A stretch of DNA of 64,000 bases from Onthophagus taurus. Its lineage: Eukaryota; Arthropoda; Insecta; Coleoptera; Scarabaeidae. The DNA lies in the NCBI RefSeq assembly GCF_036711975.1, contig NC_091976.1:8432001-8496000 (forward strand). The letters run 5' to 3'. Shown here in pieces: positions 5,987 to 63,690 of this stretch. The position numbers were made by a program, and so were the translations under genes. Position 1 is the first letter of the stretch, and every line of letters begins with the position of its first letter. The notes beneath the pieces were generated by a model, which saw nothing but the letters and a program-made list of their open reading frames with translations, was not told the DNA's origin and did no database searches.

Positions 5987-6648
5987 ACAAGAATTTTTAT
6001 TGTATTAAAAGAAAATACATAGTTAGTCGCATTCTATTTAAAATACACCATTAATCTTTAATAATGTTTAGTACTTGTTTCTGTTAATATCGTCAGAGTT
6101 AACGAAATTCGCATTTAATAAAATTTTATTCATCATATTGCTATCAAGTTGAAGTGGTGATTATCCGAAACTTGATTTTATTTGATATCACTGAAAGTAG
6201 TTGAGGAAAGGTGTAAACATTATTTTTAACAAAACTTATCGATGTAGTGATGTTACGCTTATTTATTGTAATTTTCGCCCTTGCCACATTGGCACAATGC
6301 TAATTCAATACGAACATATAAATGAAAATAATAATAAATGTATTTCTTGAACACATAATTTTTTTTGTTTGTATCCTTACGACGACAGCACTCCACCCTT
6401 TTTCCGGGCTCATACATGGCTGAAATTAGCGAATCGCGTATATCAATTTATAGGTATTAAACAGATCTCTTCTTTAATGAGAGCCCTTTATTTAAAGAGT
6501 TCTAATCAAATAAAAAGGTCTCATAAAAAAACAGTCTATTCACCAGTAACTTTGATTGGAGCTCTGTTAATACAAATTACGAATTCAATTTCTTATTTAT
6601 TAGAAGATATGAATGAACAACCTATTAAAGGAGTTTTCATGAATTTGA
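5987..6648. other. No confident gene
   Basis: A 99-codon frame at 6369-6668 matches no family I recognise. A short signal-peptide-like frame at 6250-6303 ends in a stop without a plausible splice donor. Confidence 0.4.
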
Positions 6649-10724: not shown

Positions 10725-11090
10725 TATAAAAAACTTCTTACGTGCTTAATATCAATTTATTCCGAACCGGTTTCGAGCTTAGTCCATCATCAGCCGAATC
10801 TACGTAAAAGCAATCACATTATAATCAATTAAATATAATGAAAAACATAATAAAAGTATTACAATCATAAACTTACTGTCAAATAGTTAAAAAGAAACCC
10901 ACGACGTCATTAAAACAAAAATAATGAAAAGAATACAAATTGAAATATATCAATCAATAATGATGTATGTTATTGTGAGCAATTAAAGTTAAAAACACAG
11001 TGTATAAATAAAATTGTATAGATAAAATATTTTAAAACACTTTAAAAAGAACGAAACGCACGAAACAAAACTTGACATGAGCACGAGAAA
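10725..11090 (-). mobile_element. Penelope-like terminal (pLTR) fragment
   Basis: The segment contains the CCGGTTTCGA...CAGCCGAATCTAC block that also marks the Penelope ends near 58.63 and 63.6 kb, followed by similar AT-rich sequence with a TACTGTCAAATA-type motif. No reverse transcriptase is attached. It seems to be an orphan terminal repeat of a related family. Confidence 0.45.
10761..10799 (-). ncRNA. Degenerate hammerhead-ribozyme-like motif
   Basis: Read on the minus strand: ATTCGG, then the core box CTGATGA, a weak stem II, GAAAC, CG, GTT and CGGAAT. The order matches the better copies at 58629-58670 and 63592-63633. Stem II pairs poorly here (GGA against CTC), so self-cleavage is doubtful. 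Confidence 0.3.
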
Positions 11091-14096: not shown

Positions 14097-14335
14097 CTAA
14101 ACGTAAAACTAAAACTAGAACTAACACTAGCACTATCACTAGAACTAACACTAGACCTAGAACTAGAAACTTTCGGGTTCGCTTCCAACTTGTTTTCTGA
14201 AGAAGATTGCAACATGGCACCCGAAACGTCAAACATTTTTTCAAAAAACGCACGGCTCAACCCGAAAGTTTCTAGTTCTAGGTCTAGTGTTAGTTGTAGT
14301 GATAGTGCTAGTGTTAGTTTTAGTTTTATTAACAT
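14097..14335. repeat. Palindrome built from CTAGAA/CTAACA hexamers
   Basis: A run of ACTAGA, ACTAAC and ACTAGC hexamers at 14102-14172 is mirrored inversely at 14262-14330. The arms continue through a GAAACTTTCGGGTT block. The roughly 90-base centre contains CTGAAGA (near 14198) and CGAAACGTC (near 14222), a spacing reminiscent of hammerhead cores. Confidence 0.6.
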
Positions 14336-51388: not shown

Positions 51389-53400
51389 TATTGGTGATAG
51401 CATCAAAGTGATTTTCACAGGTCATAAAAGAAAAGAATACAATAAACGCAAAAATGCAATTTTCAATAATAGTAAGTACACTAAACGTATTAATCAGTAA
51501 CAACAGGTAAGCAAAAGAACAAACAAAAAAGAGAGAAAAAGGCTTCTGGGAGGCGACACCCTGGTCATAGCAAGTCATCAAAATCATTGGTCAAAAACTC
51601 CTCAACAGTATAAAAGGCCTTCGCCACTAAATAATTTTTTATTTTGTGTTTGAAATTGTTACTCTCTAACAATCTTATGTGTTTCGGAAGGACATTGTAG
51701 AATTTTATGCCAAAATAATTGACGCCATCCCTGGCCCTTGCCGTCCGAGAATAGTCCGTAATTAAGGTATCACCTGCCCTTGTGTGGTAATTACGATAAC
51801 TATTAAGAGTTTTAAATTTGGAGATATTACCCTTGATATATAAGAGACAATGGAGAATATAAAGCGAAGGGAAAGTTAGTATCTTATAATCAATGAAATT
51901 GGCTCTACAACAGTCCCGAAAACCTAGACCGGCCATAACTCTAACACATCTTCGCTGCACACCAAAAACACGATCCGCATGGGCGGAGTGACCCCAACAA
52001 ATTAACGCGTACGATACGTGGCTGAAGAAATAGCCGTAGTATGTGTTCATTACAACATTGAACGGGACAAGGTCTCTCAGTCTCCGAATGACGAATACAA
52101 TGGTATTCAGTTTTTTCGTCAATTGGTCAATGTGGGCCTTCCACGTTAAACCAGAGTCAAGATAAACCCCCAGGAACTTGACCGGCTGCGTATACAACCT
52201 GAGACGTTTAAGTTTTTTCTCTATTCATGCTTAGTCTGTTGGCCTGAATCCAATTTGAGATGCAGGCTTGTGACTCAGATATGCGGTGATGCAAAGCATC
52301 GGCATCTGTTGAGGAGACCATTACGGTTGTATCATCAACAAAAAGGATGAGGTCGGAATCATGGGGAATGTTACTGGGTAGGTCGTTGATAAATATCAAA
52401 AACAGGAGTGGCCCCAATACTGAGCCCTGAGGTACACCAAACCTAAGTGGAAGACGACCGGACTCTAGACCGTCAAGGGAAACATACTGCGATCTGTTCG
52501 TCAAATAAGATTCGAGAAGATTTATGCTGCTGATGTCCATATTGAAGGCACTAAATTTACGAATTAGTAAGTCATGAGAGACGCAGTCGAACGCCTTTGT
52601 TAAATCATAAAAAGCAGCTCCCGAATAATTATTGGCTTCGAAGCCATTCTGAACAAATTGTACCAAAGTGCGGATGGCGTCCGATGTCGACCTATTTCTT
52701 CTAAAGCCAAACTGTCCGGAAAACAATAGGCTATTAGAATTGAGGTGAGTTGCCAGTTGATTGTTTAAAATTATTTCAAAGATTTTCCCGAAAATTGGCA
52801 GAATGGATATTGGTCTGTAATTGCAGGGGTCGTGTAGCGGGCCTTTTTTGTGAATAGGAATAACCTTTGCCACTTTCAGGCAGTCCGGAAAAATCGAGTT
52901 CAATAAGCACTGGTTTATTAGTTTAGATAATGGATAAACAATTATATTTGAGACTGTTTTTATTAACCTACTGTTTAATAGATGCACACCCCTGGACGTC
53001 GAATTTTTTAATTTTGAAATTATGTCACGTAGTTCGTTATAAGATATCGGTTTAAATTCGAAAAGTTTATTATTATGATCATTGACCAACGGACCCGAAG
53101 AGACATTATGATTGTTTAGTGTAGGACGGTTAATATCATTAAGAACACTTTCAGCCACATTAACAAAGTACGCGTTTAGGTCTGAGGCCGTGAGTTTGTC
53201 GGACGAACGTTTACAAATTGAAGGATTGGTGTTCCGAATAACTTCCCAAATAGCACGCTGTTTGTTTCCTGAGTTTTCAATGTGTTGACTGTTGGCTCTC
53301 TTCTTAGAGTCAGTAATAAGTTTCCGGTAAATACAACTACTAACATAATATATCGAAACCCACAGAATAATGTAATAGAGAATATTTTTTGAGAAGTAAA
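51346..53400 (-). mobile_element. LINE F, 5'-truncated (Jockey-like)
   Basis: The 3' end lies at the left with a long (ATT)n tail on the minus strand (51346-51385), preceded by CACCAATAAAG. The coding part covers the polymerase only, ending near 53395, where Penelope A resumes. It interrupts Penelope A. Confidence 0.7.
51565..53395 (-). pseudogene. LINE F reverse transcriptase
   Basis: The minus-strand frame entering near 53395 and running to 52208 has AIWEVIRNTNP, KVIPIHKKGPLHDPCNYRPI, FGFRRNRSTSDAI, GAAFYDLTKAFDCVSHDLLI (motif A), [20 protein letters not shown] (motif B) and LILFVDDTTVMVSS (catalytic box F-V-D-D). It runs to MNREKT, then a single frameshift near 52200 leads to the frame 52197-51565 with VKFLGVYLDSGLTWKAHIDQ and VFGVQRRCVRVMAGL. 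One frameshift in more than 600 codons makes it much better preserved than LINEs A or D. The endonuclease is missing because of 5' truncation. Confidence 0.75.
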
Positions 53401-53540
53401 ACAAAAGAAAAAATAGAAGTCCAATCATTAATTACACAATATTTCGATAAACATAATCAAAAGAATGAAATTGAACAAGATAGTAGAAATATAAATGCTG
53501 AAACAAGTAAAGTAACAAATTTGAACAAGTTTTGTAATAA
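53400..53540 (+). pseudogene. Penelope A, linker segment
   Basis: Reads KTKEKIEVQSLITQYFDKHN then a polar stretch NAETSKVTNLNKFCNKNYTR, then runs into the left arm of Penelope B. The order and the continuation at 56746 support the assignment; the sequence itself is not distinctive. Confidence 0.35.
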
Positions 53541-53587
53541 AAATTATACTCGAAGAGAAACGATGAAAGAAATTTATTTTTATATAA

Positions 53588-53628
53588 GTGCTACATGTTT
53601 CGAGACTTATAGTCTCTTCCTCAGGCAC
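53588..53628 (-). ncRNA. Hammerhead ribozyme candidate, left arm
   Basis: Minus-strand reading is identical to the plus-strand motif at 56654-56694. It lies downstream of the Penelope B gene in the same orientation, so it would be part of the sense RNA. Confidence 0.6.
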
Positions 53629-54192
53629 AACTAGAAACAAAAAACAAGGTAATGACTAAGTTATAACATTATATCTATTATTTACCGTCAAGTTTTTAGG
53701 AAACAAAATCAGAAAAAGGAAAAATGTTCATCGTCGAATGAATTCGATTATTTCAAAAATATATAAGTTTGGACAGATCAACGGTTAGATTTAAAATGTA
53801 AAGCCTTAGGGGATGTTAATAACAATTATTGTACGTGTCGAAAATTATTCCAAAAATTAAAAAATCTAAAAAAACACATGGTGTATTTCTGCAAGGTCAC
53901 GTTGAAGAAGTCAAAATGGCTACTTACTTGTTTCATCGCTAAAATTCTTTTGTATTTCTAAGATATCAAAAAGTTTTGAAAAGTTATACTGTAAGAGAAA
54001 AGGTTAAACTTTAAAAATGATTCCTTTGAAATTGTTTCTAACTATAAACTTACAGAATGAGATTTTATTCTGGGGCAAAGTGCGGGTCCAACCACGACGT
54101 AAGAAAAATTGTGGTGGACTGAATTATGGGTATTTAGTCGTTATTTGTGAGGGAAATTTAAATTAGTAGGGGGGGGAAAATTTATTTAAAAA

Positions 54193-54225
<33 letters not shown>

Positions 54226-54342
54226 ATAAAAAAAAAAACCTATCTTTTATAAATTTTGATGTTATGGAAAAAAGTATATATAGAAAAAGTTGGGGAAAAG
54301 GGAAATCGAATACAAAAAAACTTCCATCAGGGTGAAAAAACC

Positions 54343-55920
54343 TCATATAAATTTCAAAAAATTTCTGAAGTTGTTTAGTTCAGTAATATCATTGATTAGT
54401 CTGTTATTGTTATTATTAACATTAATATGTAGCTCTTCGTAGAGATCCATTTCTCTTGACTTCTTCAAGTGTAACAAAAGTTTCATGTTTTCAAATTCTA
54501 TTTTATGATTGCAACTATTAATATGTTTATAAACAGCTGATGATGGTTTAGTTAAATGTTCTTTAAAACGTTTAGAAATGTTACGACCGGTCTGTCCGAT
54601 GTATACTTTATCACATTCTGGGCATTTAATTTCATATATACCACTCAACTCGTTACTGTTAAATTGATGTTTATTGTTGAAAATGTGTTTGTGAATCTTA
54701 TTGTTGGAGACAAAGGCGGGGGCAAGGCCGAATTTTTCTAAATTTTGTTTTAAGGGGTTAATAATTGTGGGGTGGTATGGTAATCCTATAAATTTTCTCT
54801 TGACTTTAATTTGTGGGTATATCAATTTATTAACCTGGGAATTGTGAACTTTAAAGTAAATGTTCTGCATATCCTCTAAGGAATATCCGTTATTGAATCC
54901 TATTTTTAAAATCTTTTTTATTTCTTCTGTGAGATTATGGAGATTTAAGGGGATGTTATATATTCTATTGAAGAAGAATCTAAAACATGCCATTTTATGT
55001 TGTTCACAAGTAAATGACTTCTTTGGGATTATGGTATCGGTGGCGGTTGGCTTTCTGAATATATTAAATTCAACAGACCGTTTATTCATGTTTCTAGTAA
55101 TTTCCAGGTCTAGGAAGTTAATGCTTTGGGACTGTTCCATTTCCAAAGTAAATTCTAAATTACTGATATTGTTAAAGAGGTTGAAAAGACCTTTAAGTTT
55201 GGCAGGACATCCTTCATAGACAACAAGAATGTCATCCACATATCTGGCGTAGAATGCTATATCTTTATTAAAAAGGTGATTTTTATTTGAGAAAAGTTCG
55301 GTCTCGAAATGATCAACAAAAATGTCTGCTAGTATTCCAGATATGGGGGATCCCATGGGTAAACCATCTTTCATTCTGTAAAATTTGTTTTCAAAGGTGA
55401 AGAAATTTTGATTGCATACTATTTCTAAGAGACCAATAAAGCTATTAATTTCTAATATATTTAATTTATTGTGGTCCTGAAAGTTGATTAAATGTTTTTT
55501 AATAATATCAAGAGTTTGGTTGATGGGAATATTGGTATATAAATTCTTTATGTCAAATGAAACGAGTTTGCTGTTTTTATTTAGTTTAAAGTTTTTCAAT
55601 TTATTGATCAAATCTGTAGAATTCTTAATAGTATGAGTAAATTTGTTGTGGAAATGTTTGTATAGAAAATTTTGAATTAGTTTAGAGACTCTATTTGTTG
55701 GGGTATTTTGGTTGCTAATTATTGGTCTAATAGTTTTTTCGGGTTTGTGTAATTTTATAAGACATTTTAAAGTAGGTATGAGAGGATTCATTTCATTAGA
55801 ATTAAATGAGTTAATATTAAATTTAGCTAGGTATGTTGAATTTTCTCTTAAATATTTCCTGATTATGTTACTGAATGTGATGGTGGGATTGTTTTTGATT
55901 TCTACAATATTGTTGTCCAT
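54343..55920 (-). CDS. Penelope-like reverse transcriptase with GIY-YIG endonuclease
   Basis: A 525-codon open frame from ATG 55920; the frame is open a few codons further to about 55948 at the arm junction. Reverse transcriptase: IRPIISNQNTPT about residue 64, SFDIKNLYTNIP (motif A, D at 123), GLPMGSPISG about 186, YARYVDDILVV (YVDD 227-230) and NFLDLEI about 268. A GIY-YIG nuclease follows at 427-500: GIYEIKCPECDKVYIGQTGR, R at 446 and a late E. The CCHH-like C-x2-C lies inside, as in canonical Penelope proteins. Typical proteins are about 750-850 residues, so the N-terminal third is missing. Within what remains I see no stop or shift. Confidence 0.85.
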   Translation of the reverse strand: MDNNIVEIKNNPTITFSNIIRKYLRENSTYLAKFNINSFNSNEMNPLIPTLKCLIKLHKPEKTIRPIISNQNTPTNRVSKLIQNFLYKHFHNKFTHTIKNSTDLINKLKNFKLNKNSKLVSFDIKNLYTNIPINQTLDIIKKHLINFQDHNKLNILEINSFIGLLEIVCNQNFFTFENKFYRMKDGLPMGSPISGILADIFVDHFETELFSNKNHLFNKDIAFYARYVDDILVVYEGCPAKLKGLFNLFNNISNLEFTLEMEQSQSINFLDLEITRNMNKRSVEFNIFRKPTATDTIIPKKSFTCEQHKMACFRFFFNRIYNIPLNLHNLTEEIKKILKIGFNNGYSLEDMQNIYFKVHNSQVNKLIYPQIKVKRKFIGLPYHPTIINPLKQNLEKFGLAPAFVSNNKIHKHIFNNKHQFNSNELSGIYEIKCPECDKVYIGQTGRNISKRFKEHLTKPSSAVYKHINSCNHKIEFENMKLLLHLKKSREMDLYEELHINVNNNNNRLINDITELNNFRNFLKFI

Positions 55921-56058
55921 AAAGAAGTCCGAAGCCTTTTTATTATTTTTTCACCCTGATGGAAGTTTTTTTGTATTCGATTTCCCTTTTCCCCAACTTT
56001 TTCTATATATACTTTTTTCCATAACATCAAAATTTATAAAAGATAGGTTTTTTTTTAT

Positions 56059-56089
<31 letters not shown>

Positions 56090-56653
56090 TTTTTAAATAA
56101 ATTTTCCCCCCCCTACTAATTTAAATTTCCCTCACAAATAACGACTAAATACCCATAATTCAGTCCACCACAATTTTTCTTACGTCGTGGTTGGACCCGC
56201 ACTTTGCCCCAGAATAAAATCTCATTCTGTAAGTTTATAGTTAGAAACAATTTCAAAGGAATCATTTTTAAAGTTTAACCTTTTCTCTTACAGTATAACT
56301 TTTCAAAACTTTTTGATATCTTAGAAATACAAAAGAATTTTAGCGATGAAACAAGTAAGTAGCCATTTTGACTTCTTCAACGTGACCTTGCAGAAATACA
56401 CCATGTGTTTTTTTAGATTTTTTAATTTTTGGAATAATTTTCGACACGTACAATAATTGTTATTAACATCCCCTAAGGCTTTACATTTTAAATCTAACCG
56501 TTGATCTGTCCAAACTTATATATTTTTGAAATAATCGAATTCATTCGACGATGAACATTTTTCCTTTTTCTGATTTTGTTTCCTAAAAACTTGACGGTAA
56601 ATAATAGATATAATGTTATAACTTAGTCATTACCTTGTTTTTTGTTTCTAGTT

Positions 56654-56694
56654 GTGCCTGAGGAAGAGACTATAAGTCTCGAAACATGTAGCAC
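56654..56694 (+). ncRNA. Hammerhead ribozyme candidate, right arm
   Basis: Order: GTGC (stem I), CTGAGGA core at 56658-56664, one A, GAGAC-TATAA-GTCTC (stem II, five pairs), GAAAC core at 56681-56685, AT loop, GTA (cleavage after A56690), GCAC (stem I partner, four pairs). Stem III is only two pairs, as known for minimal type I hammerheads of Penelope-like elements. The extra A before stem II departs from the textbook core. Confidence 0.6.
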
Positions 56695-56745
56695 TTATAT
56701 AAAAATAAATTTCTTTCATCGTTTCTCTTCGAGTATAATTTTAAT

Positions 56746-57340
56746 ACAACTCACGATGAATTTGGAATCGATCATTGCCAAAAAGTTTTGTAAGATTAAA
56801 TACATACCATCATTAACGAATAAAATAAGTTCAGTATTTAGAGATTATGATTTTGAAGAAATTAAATTTGCAAAATATAATGACAATAAAATTAGCACAT
56901 TGATTTCAAATATGAAAGACAGAATTAAAACGATAGATAAAATCGATACCGTTTACAAGTTAAATTGTACCAACTGTGATAAAGTGTATATTGGAGAATC
57001 AAAACAACACCTAAAAAAGCGAATTCAACAACATCAATACGATTCAAAACAGATTAAAATTAATAATAAAACAGCATTGTGTCATCATGCTGTATTATTA
57101 AACCATAAGTTTGACTTTGAAAACCACAAAATACTTATTACAAATAATAATACCATGACAAGAAAAAATTTTGAATCAATTTATGTATATAACAAAAAAT
57201 ATTAATCATGCAGTCAATGTCAAAACTGATGTTGGGAAGATTGGAGCGCATTACGCGAATATCTTAGATAAATTAAATATATCAAGTGATGTCGTTGAAG
57301 TTAGCAACGGATTCAGAAACGAAATTCACATTTTCACAAC
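56746..57340 (+). pseudogene. Penelope A GIY-YIG endonuclease
   Basis: Reads YIPSLTNKISSVFRDYDFEE, KYNDNKISTLISNMKDRI, VYKLNCTNCDKVYIGESKQH (GIY-YIG, here V-Y-K and Y-I-G) and LKKRIQQHQ. ALCHHAVLLNHKFDFENHKI and RKNFESIY follow. A frameshift near 57180 leads to YITKNINHAVNVKTDVGKIG and YANILDKL. The upstream open frame from 56642 is the arm of Penelope B fused by chance and not part of this gene. Confidence 0.65.
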
Positions 57341-58484: not shown

Positions 58485-58628
58485 CCTTTTTATAATTTAC
58501 CAGGATTCAAAATACAAATAGAGTTAGTAGTCAAATCTAATATATGTGATAGAATCCATGTTGCAAGATTTATATATAATTAAGAAATAAAAGAAAAATA
58601 ACTTCTTTCTTGCCTTTTTATTAAATTT

Positions 58629-58670
58629 CCTCGGTACCGGTTTCGACTAAACAGTCATCCTCAGCCGAAT
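58629..58670 (-). ncRNA. Hammerhead ribozyme candidate, element C left arm
   Basis: Minus-strand reading: ATTCGG, CTGAGGA, T, GAC-TGTTTA-GTC, GAAAC, CG, GTA, CCGAGG. Identical to the plus-strand motif at 63592-63633. Confidence 0.5.
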
Positions 58671-58899
58671 CTACATATATGTTAAAAAATATTTTACATA
58701 AAAAACTTATTTCTATAATTAATACACTTACGGTCAAATAAATCTAATTATGAAACATTGAGAACACCATATACTTAAAAAACATTACATAAAAAATGGG
58801 AATAATTTGTTAACTTCTATAGTTAGAGTATAAAATTCGTGCTATTTAGTAGTTTGAACATATCCGACGAATTATTTATGCTGAGATAAGTTTGAAAAA

Positions 58900-59110
58900 T
58901 CAGTAATAAAATTTTTTTTCCTCTTTGTAACTCGATCCGGGGACATATTGTATAGCGTTACAATTAGAGCAACTGATCAAATAAATTCCAGTCTCATTCT
59001 CAATGTTGTAATCATTAAAATGGTAATTAGACAATAATTTATCAATTGAACTATTGTTAGAAAAAGAAAGGGCAGTATTATAAGAAGCAAAGATTTTTTT
59101 AGTAGAAAAA
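58900..59110 (-). pseudogene. Penelope C endonuclease fragment
   Basis: Minus-strand frame: LAFSTKKIFASYNTALSFSN, DKLLSNYHFNDYNIENETGI and YLISCSNCNAIQYVPGS, i.e. the start of a GIY-YIG domain (G-I-Y, then Y-V). It ends in a stop after YKEEKKFYY, losing the arginine and glutamate of the nuclease. The adjacent left arm is in the correct position for its 3' terminal repeat. Confidence 0.5.
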
Positions 59111-59116
59111 GCTAGG

Positions 59117-59316
59117 GGAGTGATGGTTTAAATACCCTTTATAACCGAACAAAGGAATTTAACCATATTTTTGAGTTAGCAAAGTACAATAAATTCCCAA
59201 TTCATATCATTAAAAATTTAATAAGAAAAATTAATATAACATTAGATCCAGTTTATTCGAAAACACCCAATTCTAAAATATTCAAATCCATACTAAGAGA
59301 GGAGACCTCAAGTTAA
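59117..59316 (+). pseudogene. Penelope-like fragment, post-polymerase type
   Basis: Plus-strand frame reads LYNRTKEFNHIFELAKYNKF and HIIKNLIRKINI, resembling the E-x-x-x-I-x-x-I-A-x-x-N-x-(Y/F) segment before the endonuclease of Penelope-like proteins. Orientation is opposite to the fragment at 58900-59110, so it belongs to another copy or to an inverted join. It ends at TAA near 59315. Confidence 0.35.
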
Positions 59317-59318
59317 GT

Positions 59319-59600
59319 TTGGATTTAATGTTTGGTGCGGTGTCATTTGTTCAAGAATTCTTGGTCCGTACATTTTTTTATGATACATTAAACGGAGATC
59401 GTTATCTTCACTTTCTACAGAACGAGTTCAGTAATATGTTGGATGGATTGCTCCTGCAGACACGTCATTTGTTTAAATGGTTTCAACGCGACGGGGGACC
59501 ACCACTTATTAAGCTAGCGATACGAAATCATGGAAACTTACGTTTGCAAACGTATCTATCAATTGTTTCCATAGCATACTACCTGAAGAGTTTTCCAATT
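59319..59600 (+). pseudogene. mariner-type transposase fragment, central region
   Basis: Reads FVQEFLVRTFFYDTLNGDRY, LHFLQNEFSNMLDGLLLQTR and WFQRDGGPPLIKLAIRNHGN. The pattern G-P-x-F-F-x-x-x-L-N-G-x-R-Y-L-x-F-L-Q followed by W-F-Q-(H)-D-G-(A)-P-P is that of insect mariner-related transposases around the second catalytic D, retained here. The rest is degraded. Confidence 0.55.
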
Positions 59601-59699
59601 AAAAGAATAAACGGCTATAATTTATTTATTAATACAAATATCTATGTCAAGTGGTATATCGTTAGAATCGTTGAGAAAAGGCCTTATTTATAAAGTCAT

Positions 59700-61216
59700 G
59701 GTCAACTATGGTTTCCATTAGAAAAATTACAAGTTTGTGTCATAACTCAAAAATTATTGCTTATATGTAACGCCAATACACGTACTGGGACTATCAGTCC
59801 CATAGCAGAAAACAGCTCAATTTTTGTTGCTCTAGCAACGTTGTACGTAGCACAATTTGTCCACTACATCTACTCCAGATTTTGTACTATTATAGTATTT
59901 GATAATTTCCGGTTTCCGTGGTCTATTAGTTGCCACTTCATTGTTTGACGTATGCAAGCTGGATAGCAATACAATAGTCTTACCCTTCTTTGGTGCGTAG
60001 GAGACAAGGGTTTCGTTTCTTGTGTAACCGAAAATGCTGTCATACTGTGCTCTACGTTTTGGCAAAGCAAAACTTGGTGGTAATTCTCTCTTGTTTTTTC
60101 GGACAGTTCCAACGTATGATATTTTCTTCTTTTCCAAAACTTTTACAAGTTTCAAACTTGTAAATCAATTGTCTGCGGTAATGTTTCTTCCGCTTCCATA
60201 AATTGACTCTGAAATTCGCATGATAATATCTTCCGCAGAATTACTTTTTTTGTAAGGTCCGTCAGGTTGTTGGCCGCAATAGATCTCCATGTTGGCTGCA
60301 TAAAAAAGTTTTGCGTCAGCAAGACAAAAGATTTTTATACCATATTTTGTTGGCTTTGACGATATATATTGCCGGAAACCACAATGACCACGAAATGCTG
60401 GAAGCATCTCATCAATAGTGACGTTTTCGCCTAAATTGTAATGTAATTTGCTGTTCTCAATAAATAAAACAAATATTTCACGAACCTACGCTAACTTGTC
60501 AGTTTCACACCTTCTTTGTCGTGTAGATCGGTCATCAAATCGGATGCATCGCATAAGGAAACGCAATCGTGAAATTGACATAACCATTCTAAAGATGTCG
60601 AGCCATCAGTTGCCCAAAAATCACAAATATTTTGGTGACCGCCTCGAAAAACTCCTGCCAAGTATAACAACCCCAGTAAAGCTTCAATTTCAATAATGTC
60701 AGTGGGGTTGCAATCTCGATCGCGGACAAATTTTTCTTTTATATTCAATATGTACTTATTTGTACTGTCAACTATGATGCTCAATATATTATTATCAAAA
60801 AATAACTTCCAACAATCTTGTTCGCATTTAGCGTCTTTTGCAAATCTACCTACTACGCCGGGTAATTTTACTAAAACATTATATGGGCGTGCCTGAGTTC
60901 GTTTCCATGGTGCCGTTTTCCATTGTGTTCCATCTTTACCTACCAAAAGTTTATCTTTGCAACGAATCATTTATCCAAAGAAACTACGTTTACTTACCGA
61001 TATAATAACCAGCTTCTTGATCTTCATCATCCTCATTTTCATCATCGTCGTCCATGTCATGATCCGTATCAGAGTCAACAGGTCTCTGTTCAATGTTATC
61101 TTCAGTTTCTGAATCATCTGATTCTTTGAAATCGTTATCCGGTAAAGTCACATTTTCGTCAATTTCTTTAAAAACTAAGCGAATTAGCTGATCTACATCA
61201 GCGGCATTACCAAAGT
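59700..61216 (-). pseudogene. piggyBac-type transposase, broken and 5'-interrupted
   Basis: On the minus strand: an acidic leader (EDNIEQRPVDSDTDHDMDDD, 61020-61210), then GTQWKTAPWKRTQARPYNVL, NNILSIIVDSTNKYI and ALLGLLYLAGV (frame 60970-60491). After a break come VTIDEMLPAFRGHCGFRQYI (first catalytic D region), KYGIKIFCLADAKLFYAANM (second D) and EIYCGQQ (60420-60165). The last frame, from 60155, has YVGTVRKNKRELPPS and KSGVDVVDKLC. These are the piggyBac DDE-D landmarks in order. Two frame breaks exist. LINE E is inserted upstream at 61217, cutting off the N-terminal end; TTAA-bordered ends were not located. Confidence 0.75.
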
Positions 61217-63055
61217 CATTTATTTATTTATTTATTACATATTCGGGATGCATACGGGGAGAATATCCCCAACAAAGCATCCTCATAATAACGAAAATAA
61301 AGCGATCAACAAAACATCCGCTATACATTAGTTAGTACATATTTTCTAAAAGAGCGCAAGGAAACGTCAAAGAGAGGTACATGGTTGAAGCCTTGGTTAT
61401 AGGAATTAAGAATTAGAAACTAATGGAGAGCTTTGGTAAAGGTTGGTGTTAGATCTATCAAGACGAAATGTAGCGTTGAAACGTATAACCCGTTGCGGTA
61501 CATTGAAACTCAACTCAGGCAGAAGATCGGGGGTATGCAGCATGCCATTAACAAGCTTGAAGAGGAAGATCAAGTCAGCAACAATTCGACGCTGCTGCAG
61601 TGACAACAAGTTGAAGACCACGCAACGCCTATCGTAATCGCAGTAAGGAAGATGAAATTTATGTGCCAAATAACGTACAAAGCGTCGCTGAATAGCTTCA
61701 ATACGACCACGATACACCGCATACATGGGGTTCCATATTACGGAACCATAACAAAGCACACTGTTGACAAATGCCAAATAAAGGGTTTTTATACACAAAA
61801 AATTCGTGAAATTCTTACTGACCTTACTGATGAAATCGCAACTTGGAATCCAATATGATGCCAAGATGTTTACTTTATAAGTGGGCGGGATAGCAGCACC
61901 GTTAAAGTTGTAAGGAAAGTTAAGAGGATAACGTTTCCTAGTAAATGTAATTTTTTGGCATTTGTCATAATTTAGGTGCAGTTTGTTGAGGCGACAGTAC
62001 TCATGCAGGCGGTCAAGATCCTCCTGTAGTCTAAGGCAGTCCAGATTAGACCCGATCCTTGTGAATATTTTATTATCGTCGGCATAGAGTAGAAACTTAG
62101 AAAATATAAAACACGAAGAAATATCATTTATGTACATTACGAATAGTAAGGGTCCAAGATGACTGCCCTGAGGCACACCGGATGTGATAGGTTTGTAGCC
62201 AGATATAAAGCTACCAATCCTAACTGCTTGACTTCGGTTAGATAAATACGACATAATCCAGTGAACAAGACCATCTGGAATATCAAAGGAGAAAAGTTTC
62301 TGTACAAGAATAGTATGATCGATTTTGTCGAAGGCTTTGGAGTAATCGGTGTAGATTGCGTCAATCTGAATATCCTCGTTTAAAGCAGAATGAATAAAAT
62401 TTACATAAGACAACAAATTAGACTCCACCGATCGCCCAGACAGAAAACCATGTTGTTCATTGATTATAGAGTGAGAAATAGACAGACCAAGATATTCGTG
62501 GACAATTTTTTCAAATACCTTGGGGATAGCTGAAAGGATAGAAATAGGACGGTAATTGGATACCAACTGTTTAACAACGGATTTAAATATTGGAATAACG
62601 AAAGCCGTTTTCCACATACTTGGGAAAACACCTTCAAGTAAGGACTTCGAAAAAATACGAAACAGTGGCATTGACAGCTCAGTAGCAAACTCTTTTAAGA
62701 ATAAAGATGGAATACCATCCGGGCCAGGACTAAACGACTGGTCAAGATGCAACAGAACGTTATGAATTGCATTAGCGGAAAACCACGGCAAAACCCCAGA
62801 GCCATGGGCAATCACTGAGCTGTCGATTGTGCCATCTACAAAAACAGACGAGAAGTAATCCGAGAAAGCACAAGAGATCGCAGAACATGAGTCAACTATG
62901 GTTCCATCAAAGGAAGTCATTGAGGCTGGCATGCCAGATGAGGAACCACTTTTGCCATTAACAAACGATCATATCTTCTTTGGTTTCCCCAACACATCTG
63001 CCTGAATGGAACTCAGATAAGCTCTGTAATCAGCAGCTATCAATTTTGGAGAACG
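61217..63055 (-). mobile_element. LINE E, 5'-truncated (CR1/Jockey group)
   Basis: The 3' end is at the left with a (TAAA)n tail on the minus strand (61217-61240) inside piggyBac. Coding similarity to LINE polymerases runs rightward to about 63055 (AADYRAYLSSIQADVLGKPK). Its coding frame is one of the least damaged of the window's LINEs. Confidence 0.7.
61406..63050 (-). pseudogene. LINE E reverse transcriptase
   Basis: The frame from the ATG at 62932 is open for 508 codons: FSPGPDGIPSLFLKE, FVIPIFKSVVKQLVSNYRPI, EQHGFLSGRSVESNLLSY, AIYTDYSKAFDKIDH (motif A), SGVPQGSHLGPLLFVMYIND (motif B), FLLYADDNKIFTRI (catalytic box) and LQQRRIVADLIFLFKLVNGM. Upstream the same frame continues (SPKLIAADYRAYLSSIQ, GKPKKI) but meets TGA at 62966-62968, where related LINEs have tryptophan, then SFVNGKSG. 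The ATG is therefore not the native start. The endonuclease is missing. Confidence 0.75.
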
Positions 63056-63491
63056 TTACTCCAAAATTTATAAATATACACAATTTTATGTATTCCCGCT
63101 ATCTGATATGCATGTCAGTTTTATTTTTATCGCGCATACTCCATCCTCCGTCTTCCGTATTTTCTTCACCAACTTCATATGTCATCGTCTTATCGTTTTG
63201 TTATCATGTCATGTCCGTTTGGTTTAAGTTTTCATTTTTAATCTGTTAACATCTGTTTATCAAAGTGTTTTTATCTTTTTACTTCATCACGTAATTGGTC
63301 ACTTTTTGCTGTTTTTTCATGTTTTACATTTATTTTAATTTTACTTCTCTCACACAACATAACATAACCCCATTTTGGATTTTGAATCCCTCTTCTTTGG
63401 ATTTGATTGTTTGATATATTTTTTGAGAAAGCTAATATACCTTCCATTATTTTCACTAAAATTTTTATGCATGATTTATTTCATAATGATG
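63056..63491. other. Presumed Penelope terminal-repeat sequence
   Basis: T-rich sequence between LINE E and the right arm of element C. It includes ACTTCTCTCACACAACATAAC and no reading frame. Position suggests terminal-repeat or leader sequence, not verified by a second copy. Confidence 0.35.
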
Positions 63492-63591
63492 ATGGTGTTC
63501 TCAATGTTTCATAATTAGATTTATTTGACCATAAGTGTATTAATTATAGAAATAAGTTTTTTATGTAAAATATTTTTTAACATATATGTAG

Positions 63592-63633
63592 ATTCGGCTG
63601 AGGATGACTGTTTAGTCGAAACCGGTACCGAGG
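63592..63633 (+). ncRNA. Hammerhead ribozyme candidate, element C right arm
   Basis: ATTCGG (stem I), CTGAGGA core 63598-63604, T, GAC-TGTTTA-GTC (stem II, three pairs), GAAAC 63618-63622, CG, GTA (cleavage after A63627), CCGAGG (stem I partner: C-G, C-G, G-C, A-U, then G-U). Same layout as the motif at 56654-56694 in a different family. Confidence 0.5.
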
Positions 63634-63690
63634 AAGTTTAATAAAAAAGCAAGGAAAAAGTTATTTTTCTATTATGTCTTAAATCTAATA

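What the first reader, a model, noticed from the sequence alone, without database searches (positions are those of the whole stretch)
56654..56694. Hammerhead ribozyme candidates in both inverted arms of Penelope element B
Core boxes CTGAGGA and GAAAC, a five-pair stem II, a two-pair stem III and a perfect four-pair stem I occur in order within 41 bases, on the plus strand here and on the minus strand at 53588-53628. Penelope-like elements are known to carry minimal type I hammerheads in terminal repeats. One unpaired A before stem II is unusual; the element C motif shows an unpaired T at the same place, so the position seems tolerated.
Basis: partly seen in the sequence, partly recalled or inferred. 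Interest (0 to 1): 0.8.

Follow-up and report, generated by a model that had tools for sequence, protein, structure and literature searches.

The report
Minimal hammerhead ribozymes in Penelope retrotransposon
A young jumping gene of the Penelope type, in what is probably a beetle genome, carries a small RNA motif that should cut its own RNA, once in each of its two mirror-image ends; such motifs are already known from this type of jumping gene.

Summary
The motif is real and not chance. A strict scan (core, stem II and stem I of at least 4 pairs each) finds 4 sites in the window and none in 300 shuffles. Stem II has six pairs, not five. Across the motif groups of this genome stems I and II change sequence but keep pairing: 98.8% of cells paired against 76.4% shuffled, 8 of 12 pairs changed on both sides. 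The unpaired base before stem II occurs in every group, so it is regular here. Stem III plus loop is a palindrome, reported as needed by hammerheads that cleave as dimers. Element B is one insertion: 11-bp target duplication, 4 of 4 fetched related sites empty, arms alike except 4 nt. Inverted outward-facing arms are the rule: 22 of 22 listed neighbouring pairs in three families, each with one long and one short end, matching published Penelope architecture. Verdict: a new member of a known kind; self-cleavage is inferred, not shown. Most novel lead: of 8 A/B-family insertions with an arm truncated near the motif, 3 have an arm starting within 2 nt of the predicted cut, a possible trace of cleavage in vivo; small numbers, tested after the fact.

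The parts
53527..53537 (.). left target site duplication AAGTTTTGTAA
   Evidence: the 11 bases occur once in 4 of 4 related empty sites fetched (L105-L108)
53538..54340 (-). left inverted arm (pseudo-LTR, short end without tail), sense to the RT-EN ORF
53588..53628 (-). hammerhead motif, sense to the ORF; predicted cut on the minus strand between 53592 and 53591
   Evidence: (60.4 bits, own model R1, which this sequence helped to build)
54343..55920 (-). RT and GIY-YIG ORF, 525 aa from its first ATG, truncated at its N-terminal side; element junction near 55946
55946..56782 (+). right inverted arm (pseudo-LTR with tail), antisense to the ORF
56654..56694 (+). hammerhead motif: stem I 56654-56657/56691-56694; core 56658-56664; extra A 56665; stem II 56666-56671/56675-56680; GAAAC 56681-56685; stem III pairs A56684-U56689 and C56685-G56688; predicted cut after 56690
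56746..56782 (+). tail present only in the right arm; holds the ORF start (ATG 56756-56758, MNLESIIAK)
   Evidence: the Onthophagus relative P0002 starts MKLESQIAK (compared by eye)
56783..56793 (.). right target site duplication
56784..57205 (+). continuation of an older, different Penelope-like ORF into which element B inserted (left part 53420-53537)
   Evidence: Pfam search of 56756-57205 found no family, GIY-YIG likeness read by eye
58631..58668 (-). hammerhead motif of element C, left arm
63594..63631 (+). hammerhead motif of element C, right arm
10757..10801 (-). decayed copy of a related motif (family F), 31.8 bits
   Evidence: family copies

Best explanation
The motif is a minimal type I hammerhead ribozyme belonging to the pseudo-LTR of a Penelope-like element. 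In the sense RNA it sits just upstream of the element's start codon (65 nt lie between the cut and the ATG). It should cleave after position 56690, giving an RNA whose 5' end is GCAC and which starts just before the ORF. Its own stem III is only two pairs. Because stem III plus loop is a six-base palindrome, two copies can pair through it and act as a double hammerhead, or the element protein may assist the monomer. The two copies in element B exist because one insertion event joined two reverse-transcribed ends head to head. Only the left one is sense to the ORF; the right one is its mirror copy. Shown here: sequence, pairing conservation, single insertion, orientation. Inferred: cleavage, dimer mode, role in forming the template RNA.
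For: Covariation over 16 distinct motifs: 98.8% of cells paired (shuffles 76.4%, slid versions 26-41%), 8 of 12 pairs with changes on both sides. Groups D and E entered through a search for core, GAAA and C..GU that did not ask for stems I or II. In the E relatives, which were found by DNA similarity and not by the core, the A-U pair beside the cleavage site is kept in 20 of 20 rows with letters. RNA folding of B gives stems I and II as the minimum, and two copies fold into a double hammerhead with a six-pair stem III, -26.6 against -21.8 kcal/mol for two monomers. The ORF start resembles that of a dung-beetle relative. 11-bp duplication and 4 of 4 fetched empty sites. 15 of 15 listed A/B pairs and 7 of 7 listed F pairs are outward-facing with one long and one short end.
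Against: No cleavage was measured. No Rfam hammerhead model matches. The extra base between A9 and stem II departs from the textbook core (recalled). Within the E group alone the test gives no support: 94.4% of cells paired against 94.6% in shuffles, no pair changed on both sides (0 of 9), so the covariation lies between groups. For elements C and E the predicted minimum fold is not the hammerhead. A transcript across all of element B would fold its two arms into a ~700-bp hairpin and hide the motif (inference). No same-strand neighbours within 6 kb among the 53 listed A/B arms, so the tandem cis-dimer described for other such elements is not seen here.
Confidence: 0.88

Rival explanations
1. 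The conserved hairpin is kept for another reason, such as a protein-binding site or an RT initiation or termination signal of the element, and the ribozyme core is vestigial or inactive.
For: In the Anolis element the protein needs the first 172 nt of the ORF in its template, hammerhead mutants still insert in vitro, and no RNA reads began or ended at the cut site (PMC11167929, main text). Some copies here have a damaged core, for example CTCAGGA in C-family arms.
Against: The letters kept are the hammerhead core letters. In E relatives found by DNA similarity the A-U pair beside the cut is kept in 20 of 20 rows. The nucleotide before the cut is A, U or C except in L048 and L049, which have G. 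A plain binding hairpin would not require GAAAC and a UH site.
Confidence: 0.09
2. The motif is a chance match in an AT-rich repeat.
For: Core words alone appear by chance about 0.1-0.7 times per window; one of the 7 core hits (6064-6104) has no stems and looks like chance.
Against: 0 of 300 shuffles give the full structure; pairing is kept across divergent families.
Confidence: 0.01
3. On the inverted arms (a separate question): they arise by self-priming on an antisense template (Arkhipova 2013) rather than by priming from both cut target strands.
For: PMC3846280 (passages) proposes this from palindromes at junctions; arms of B are identical apart from 4 nt.
Against: Every listed pair has two different ends, one long and one short (22 of 22), as expected from two separate initiations; the Anolis protein cuts and extends both strands and uses two adjacent start sites in vitro, though without a difference between the strands (PMC11167929). 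Identical arms fit both models.
Confidence: 0.35

Closest known systems
Minimal type I hammerheads of Penelope-like elements (Cervera and de la Pena 2014; Lunse et al. 2017; neither paper held, known through passages of PMC6155905, PMC7761336 and PMC6466107)
   Same: Location in pseudo-LTRs, type I layout, near-absent stem III, palindromic stem III region that allows double hammerheads.
   Different: Here a constant extra base separates A9 from stem II; whether the published set shows it could not be checked. Arms are inverted, not in tandem.
Hammerhead of the Anolis Poseidon element PAc (Frangieh et al. 2024, PMC11167929, main text)
   Same: Hammerhead at the pseudo-LTR/ORF border, RT-EN ORF, internal start of reverse transcription inside the ORF 5' part, tail.
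   Different: There the ORF starts at stem II; here 65 nt lie between the cut and the start codon. There loci are tandem repeats.
Penelope elements of Adineta vaga (Arkhipova et al. 2013, PMC3846280, passages)
   Same: Inverted pseudo-LTRs, a 31-bp tail on one of them, tail inside the ORF start, 8-10 bp target duplications.
   Different: Words beginning with 'ribozyme' occur 0 times in its main text. Here the duplications are 11-12 bp in 5 of the 6 found, the sixth ambiguous.

Membership tests
Hammerhead ribozyme, minimal type I | CUGANGA and GAAA core with the A-U pair and UH cleavage triplet in order | tested here: met
   present in window and relatives (set was selected for most of it); one extra base between A9 and stem II
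Hammerhead ribozyme, minimal type I | Three helices, ends open at stem I | tested here: met
   stems I and II supported by covariation; stem III two invariant pairs, so not itself tested by covariation
Hammerhead ribozyme, minimal type I | Self-cleavage after the UH nucleotide | not testable with these tools
   needs RNA in vitro; genomic footprint only suggestive
Penelope-type dimer hammerhead | Palindromic stem III and loop | tested here: met
   ACATGT, ACCGGT, ACTAGT; a few copies deviate (ACTGGT in L064/L066 and L089, AGTAGT in L085 and L092, ATTAGT in L088)
Penelope-type dimer hammerhead | Two hammerheads in tandem in one RNA | tested here: not met
   0 same-strand neighbours within 6 kb among 53 listed A/B arms and 40 listed F arms; lists are capped; a dimer could still form between two RNAs
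Rfam Hammerhead_1 and other curated hammerhead models | Score above the curated threshold | tested here: not met
   the control genomes also rang in 0 of 14, so the genome answer is uninformative
Penelope-like retrotransposon | RT plus GIY-YIG endonuclease ORF | tested here: met
   RVT_1 E 9.3e-15, GIY-YIG E 6e-6; relatives in beetles
Penelope-like retrotransposon | Pseudo-LTRs, tail, target duplication | tested here: met

The most novel reading that the evidence does not exclude
The hammerhead cuts in vivo and its 3' product is used as the reverse-transcription template, so that insertions record the cut. In the C6:19435470-19435760 insertion both opposed arms begin 1-2 nt from the predicted cut. 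In C1:16977480-16977800 one arm begins exactly at the first base after it, followed by what looks like a template jump (the other arm begins 12 nt later). In C3:11118660-11119180 one begins one base further on. Because no tandem hammerheads were seen in these families, cleavage would run through two RNAs pairing by their palindromic stem III, or with the element's protein.
Probability: 0.35. Interest if true: 0.65.

Novelty: new member of a known kind. Interest (0 to 1): 0.42.

Why it matters
[quoted passage not shown] A genome with several young families, clean target duplications and very short double-ended insertions gives a way to ask, from DNA alone, whether templates begin at the ribozyme cut. 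It also suggests that such elements can persist with outward-facing, non-tandem hammerheads.

Tried and rejected
Rfam models on the window and slices, and RF00163 on the genome: nothing. The genome answer is uninformative, since the control genomes rang in 0 of 14. RF02275 on the genome did not complete. Genome-wide count of the core pattern: not completed. A first motif alignment used wrong coordinates and was not used. Footprint in families C, F and E: 0 of 40, 0 of 40 and 0 of 7 listed rows start at the cut (C and F lists capped at 40 of 75 and 40 of 52 candidates). The nearest C-family arm (C1:16341774) starts 4 nt upstream when read and is not counted as a hit; one E row starts about 28 nt after the cut (alignment only, not read). 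Full-length elements with a 5' end at the cut: in the two longer B copies looked at (C8:14513482, C11:4936678) the inner ends lie inside the ORF. Two alignment breaks that looked like truncations (C22:669485, C8:18705775) proved to be rearranged or interrupted motifs when read and were dropped from the count. The match at 14197 lacks a good stem II and that at 6064 lacks stems; both set aside.

Full report
Setting. The window is part of a 291-Mb genome in 33 contigs. The best named protein relative of the element's RT is from the dung beetle Onthophagus taurus (56% identity); other beetles (Photinus, Coccinella) follow, and a grasshopper, butterfly and whitefly lower down. The host is probably a beetle; this is inference.

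The motif. Stem II has six pairs with an ATA loop. The core pattern with spacer occurs 7 times in the window against 0.72 by chance. My stricter scan gives four sites with both stems, two in element B and two in element C, and none in 300 dinucleotide shuffles. Rfam's hammerhead models do not match at any level used.

Relatives and covariation. A 171-nt query found 42 places in the genome; 40 span the motif, and the two arms at C6:19435546 begin within its last bases. Thirty were fetched. They fall into the B family and a related A family in which a C-G pair of stem II is U-A. Element C is a different family with stem I UCGG/CCGA and stem II GACU/AGUC. A search of the fetched loci for core, GAAA and C..GU, without asking for stem I or II, brought in two further groups, D and E, both with matching stems. 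On 16 distinct motifs the structure pairs in 98.8% of cells; shuffled 76.4%, slid by 1-3 columns 26-41%; 8 of 12 pairs change on both sides. The two stem III pairs never vary in this set, which was selected for them, and so say nothing. Within the E group alone, 22 distinct rows found by DNA similarity, the test gives no support (94.4% paired, shuffles 94.6%, 0 of 9 pairs changed on both sides): the support comes from differences between groups. A model built from the 16 finds both elements and one decayed copy in the window and 26 matches in 20 fetched E relatives, 23 of them at E below 1e-4.

The extra base. Every motif that keeps both stems has, read by eye, one unpaired A or T between CTGANGA and stem II. 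I could not check whether the published Penelope set has it, as the two primary papers are not held.

Palindrome. Stem III and its loop read ACATGT in A and B, ACCGGT in C and D, ACTAGT in E; a few copies deviate (ACTGGT in L064/L066 and L089, AGTAGT in L085 and L092, ATTAGT in L088). A passage of PMC6466107 says, citing Lunse 2017, that dimer hammerheads need a palindromic stem III loop and, in eukaryotes, a tandem arrangement. Folding two B RNAs together gives the double hammerhead as the minimum; the single C and E motifs do not fold as hammerheads. The tandem arrangement was not seen: among 53 listed A/B arms no two neighbours within 6 kb lie on the same strand, nor among 40 listed F arms. 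These lists come (10 of 10 candidates scored; 40 of 57; 36 of 36; 40 of 52), so some arms are missing.

Element B is one insertion. Its arms are perfect inverted repeats over 698 nt and differ over ~790 nt only by 4 nt in an A/T run. It is flanked by AAGTTTTGTAA, which occurs once in 4 of 4 related empty sites (4 fetched of the 41 matches). The site lies in an older Penelope-like ORF. Shared flanks of 11-12 bp, or up to 17 in one ambiguous case, were seen in 6 of the 7 pairs examined; the seventh (L021/L022) showed none, probably because the compared end was not the element end.

Two different ends. The right arm of B ends at GCCAAAA inside the ORF start; the left stops ~38 nt earlier. In the A and B families 15 of 15 listed neighbouring opposite-strand pairs are outward-facing with one long and one short end; in F 7 of 7. 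This is the 'tail' of the Penelope literature (PMC3846280, passages; PMC11167929, main text). The Anolis protein cuts and extends both target strands from two adjacent internal start sites in vitro, without a difference in start site between the strands (PMC11167929). Two separate initiations would produce this architecture. That link is my inference; self-priming is the published alternative (PMC3846280).

Possible footprint of cleavage. If RNA is cut after GUA, a cDNA that runs off the new 5' end should begin at GCAC. Among the A/B arms (53 rows), eight insertions have at least one arm whose inner end lies between -5 and +95 of the cut (two alignment breaks dropped after reading). In three it lies at -2 to +1: C6:19435470-19435760 in both arms, C1:16977480-16977800 exactly in one arm (the other at +12), C3:11118660-11119180 at +1 or exactly with one changed base. 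The other five lie at about +5, +12, +28, +37 and +43. For 3 of 8 in a 4-nt window chosen after the fact, a uniform model gives 0.003; adding the two truncated C and E arms, which are not at the cut, gives 0.006. No arm starts at the cut in the C, F and E searches (0 of 40, 0 of 40, 0 of 7). I regard this as a lead.

Literature limits. Searches run. No listed title or abstract start reports insertions that begin at a hammerhead cut in these elements, but the library lacks most subscription papers and I opened only some of the listed ones.

Verdict. A real minimal hammerhead in a young Penelope-like element with inverted ends: a known kind. Cleavage is inferred from structure.

Noticed in passing
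window 58575-63687 and C11:8.49-9.59 Mb, C20: Element C arm pairs, about 5 kb apart, recur at many places on C11 and C20 at 93-100% identity, so this region seems to hold a series of large segmental repeats of roughly 100 kb or more; element B was found in only one of them.
   Followed up: partly
window 53420-53537 with 56784-57205: Element B interrupts an older Penelope-like ORF of another family; 40 other matches to its right flank are listed in the genome (40 of 49 candidates scored).
   Followed up: partly
L071, L072, L073, L076, L078, L080: Short double-ended Penelope insertions (about 150-500 bp) made of two opposed 3' arms; L071 has an inverted stretch at the inner junction, as if by a template jump (read by eye).
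   Followed up: partly
window 14120-14300: A possible further, decayed Penelope hammerhead (CTGAAGAAG...CGAAACGTC) between inverted copies of a simple repeat.
   Followed up: no
window 51565-53428, 59832-60960 and 61200-63000: A non-LTR reverse transcriptase-like stretch beside element B and, inside element C, stretches that look like a piggyBac-type transposase and another non-LTR element (read by eye only).
   Followed up: no
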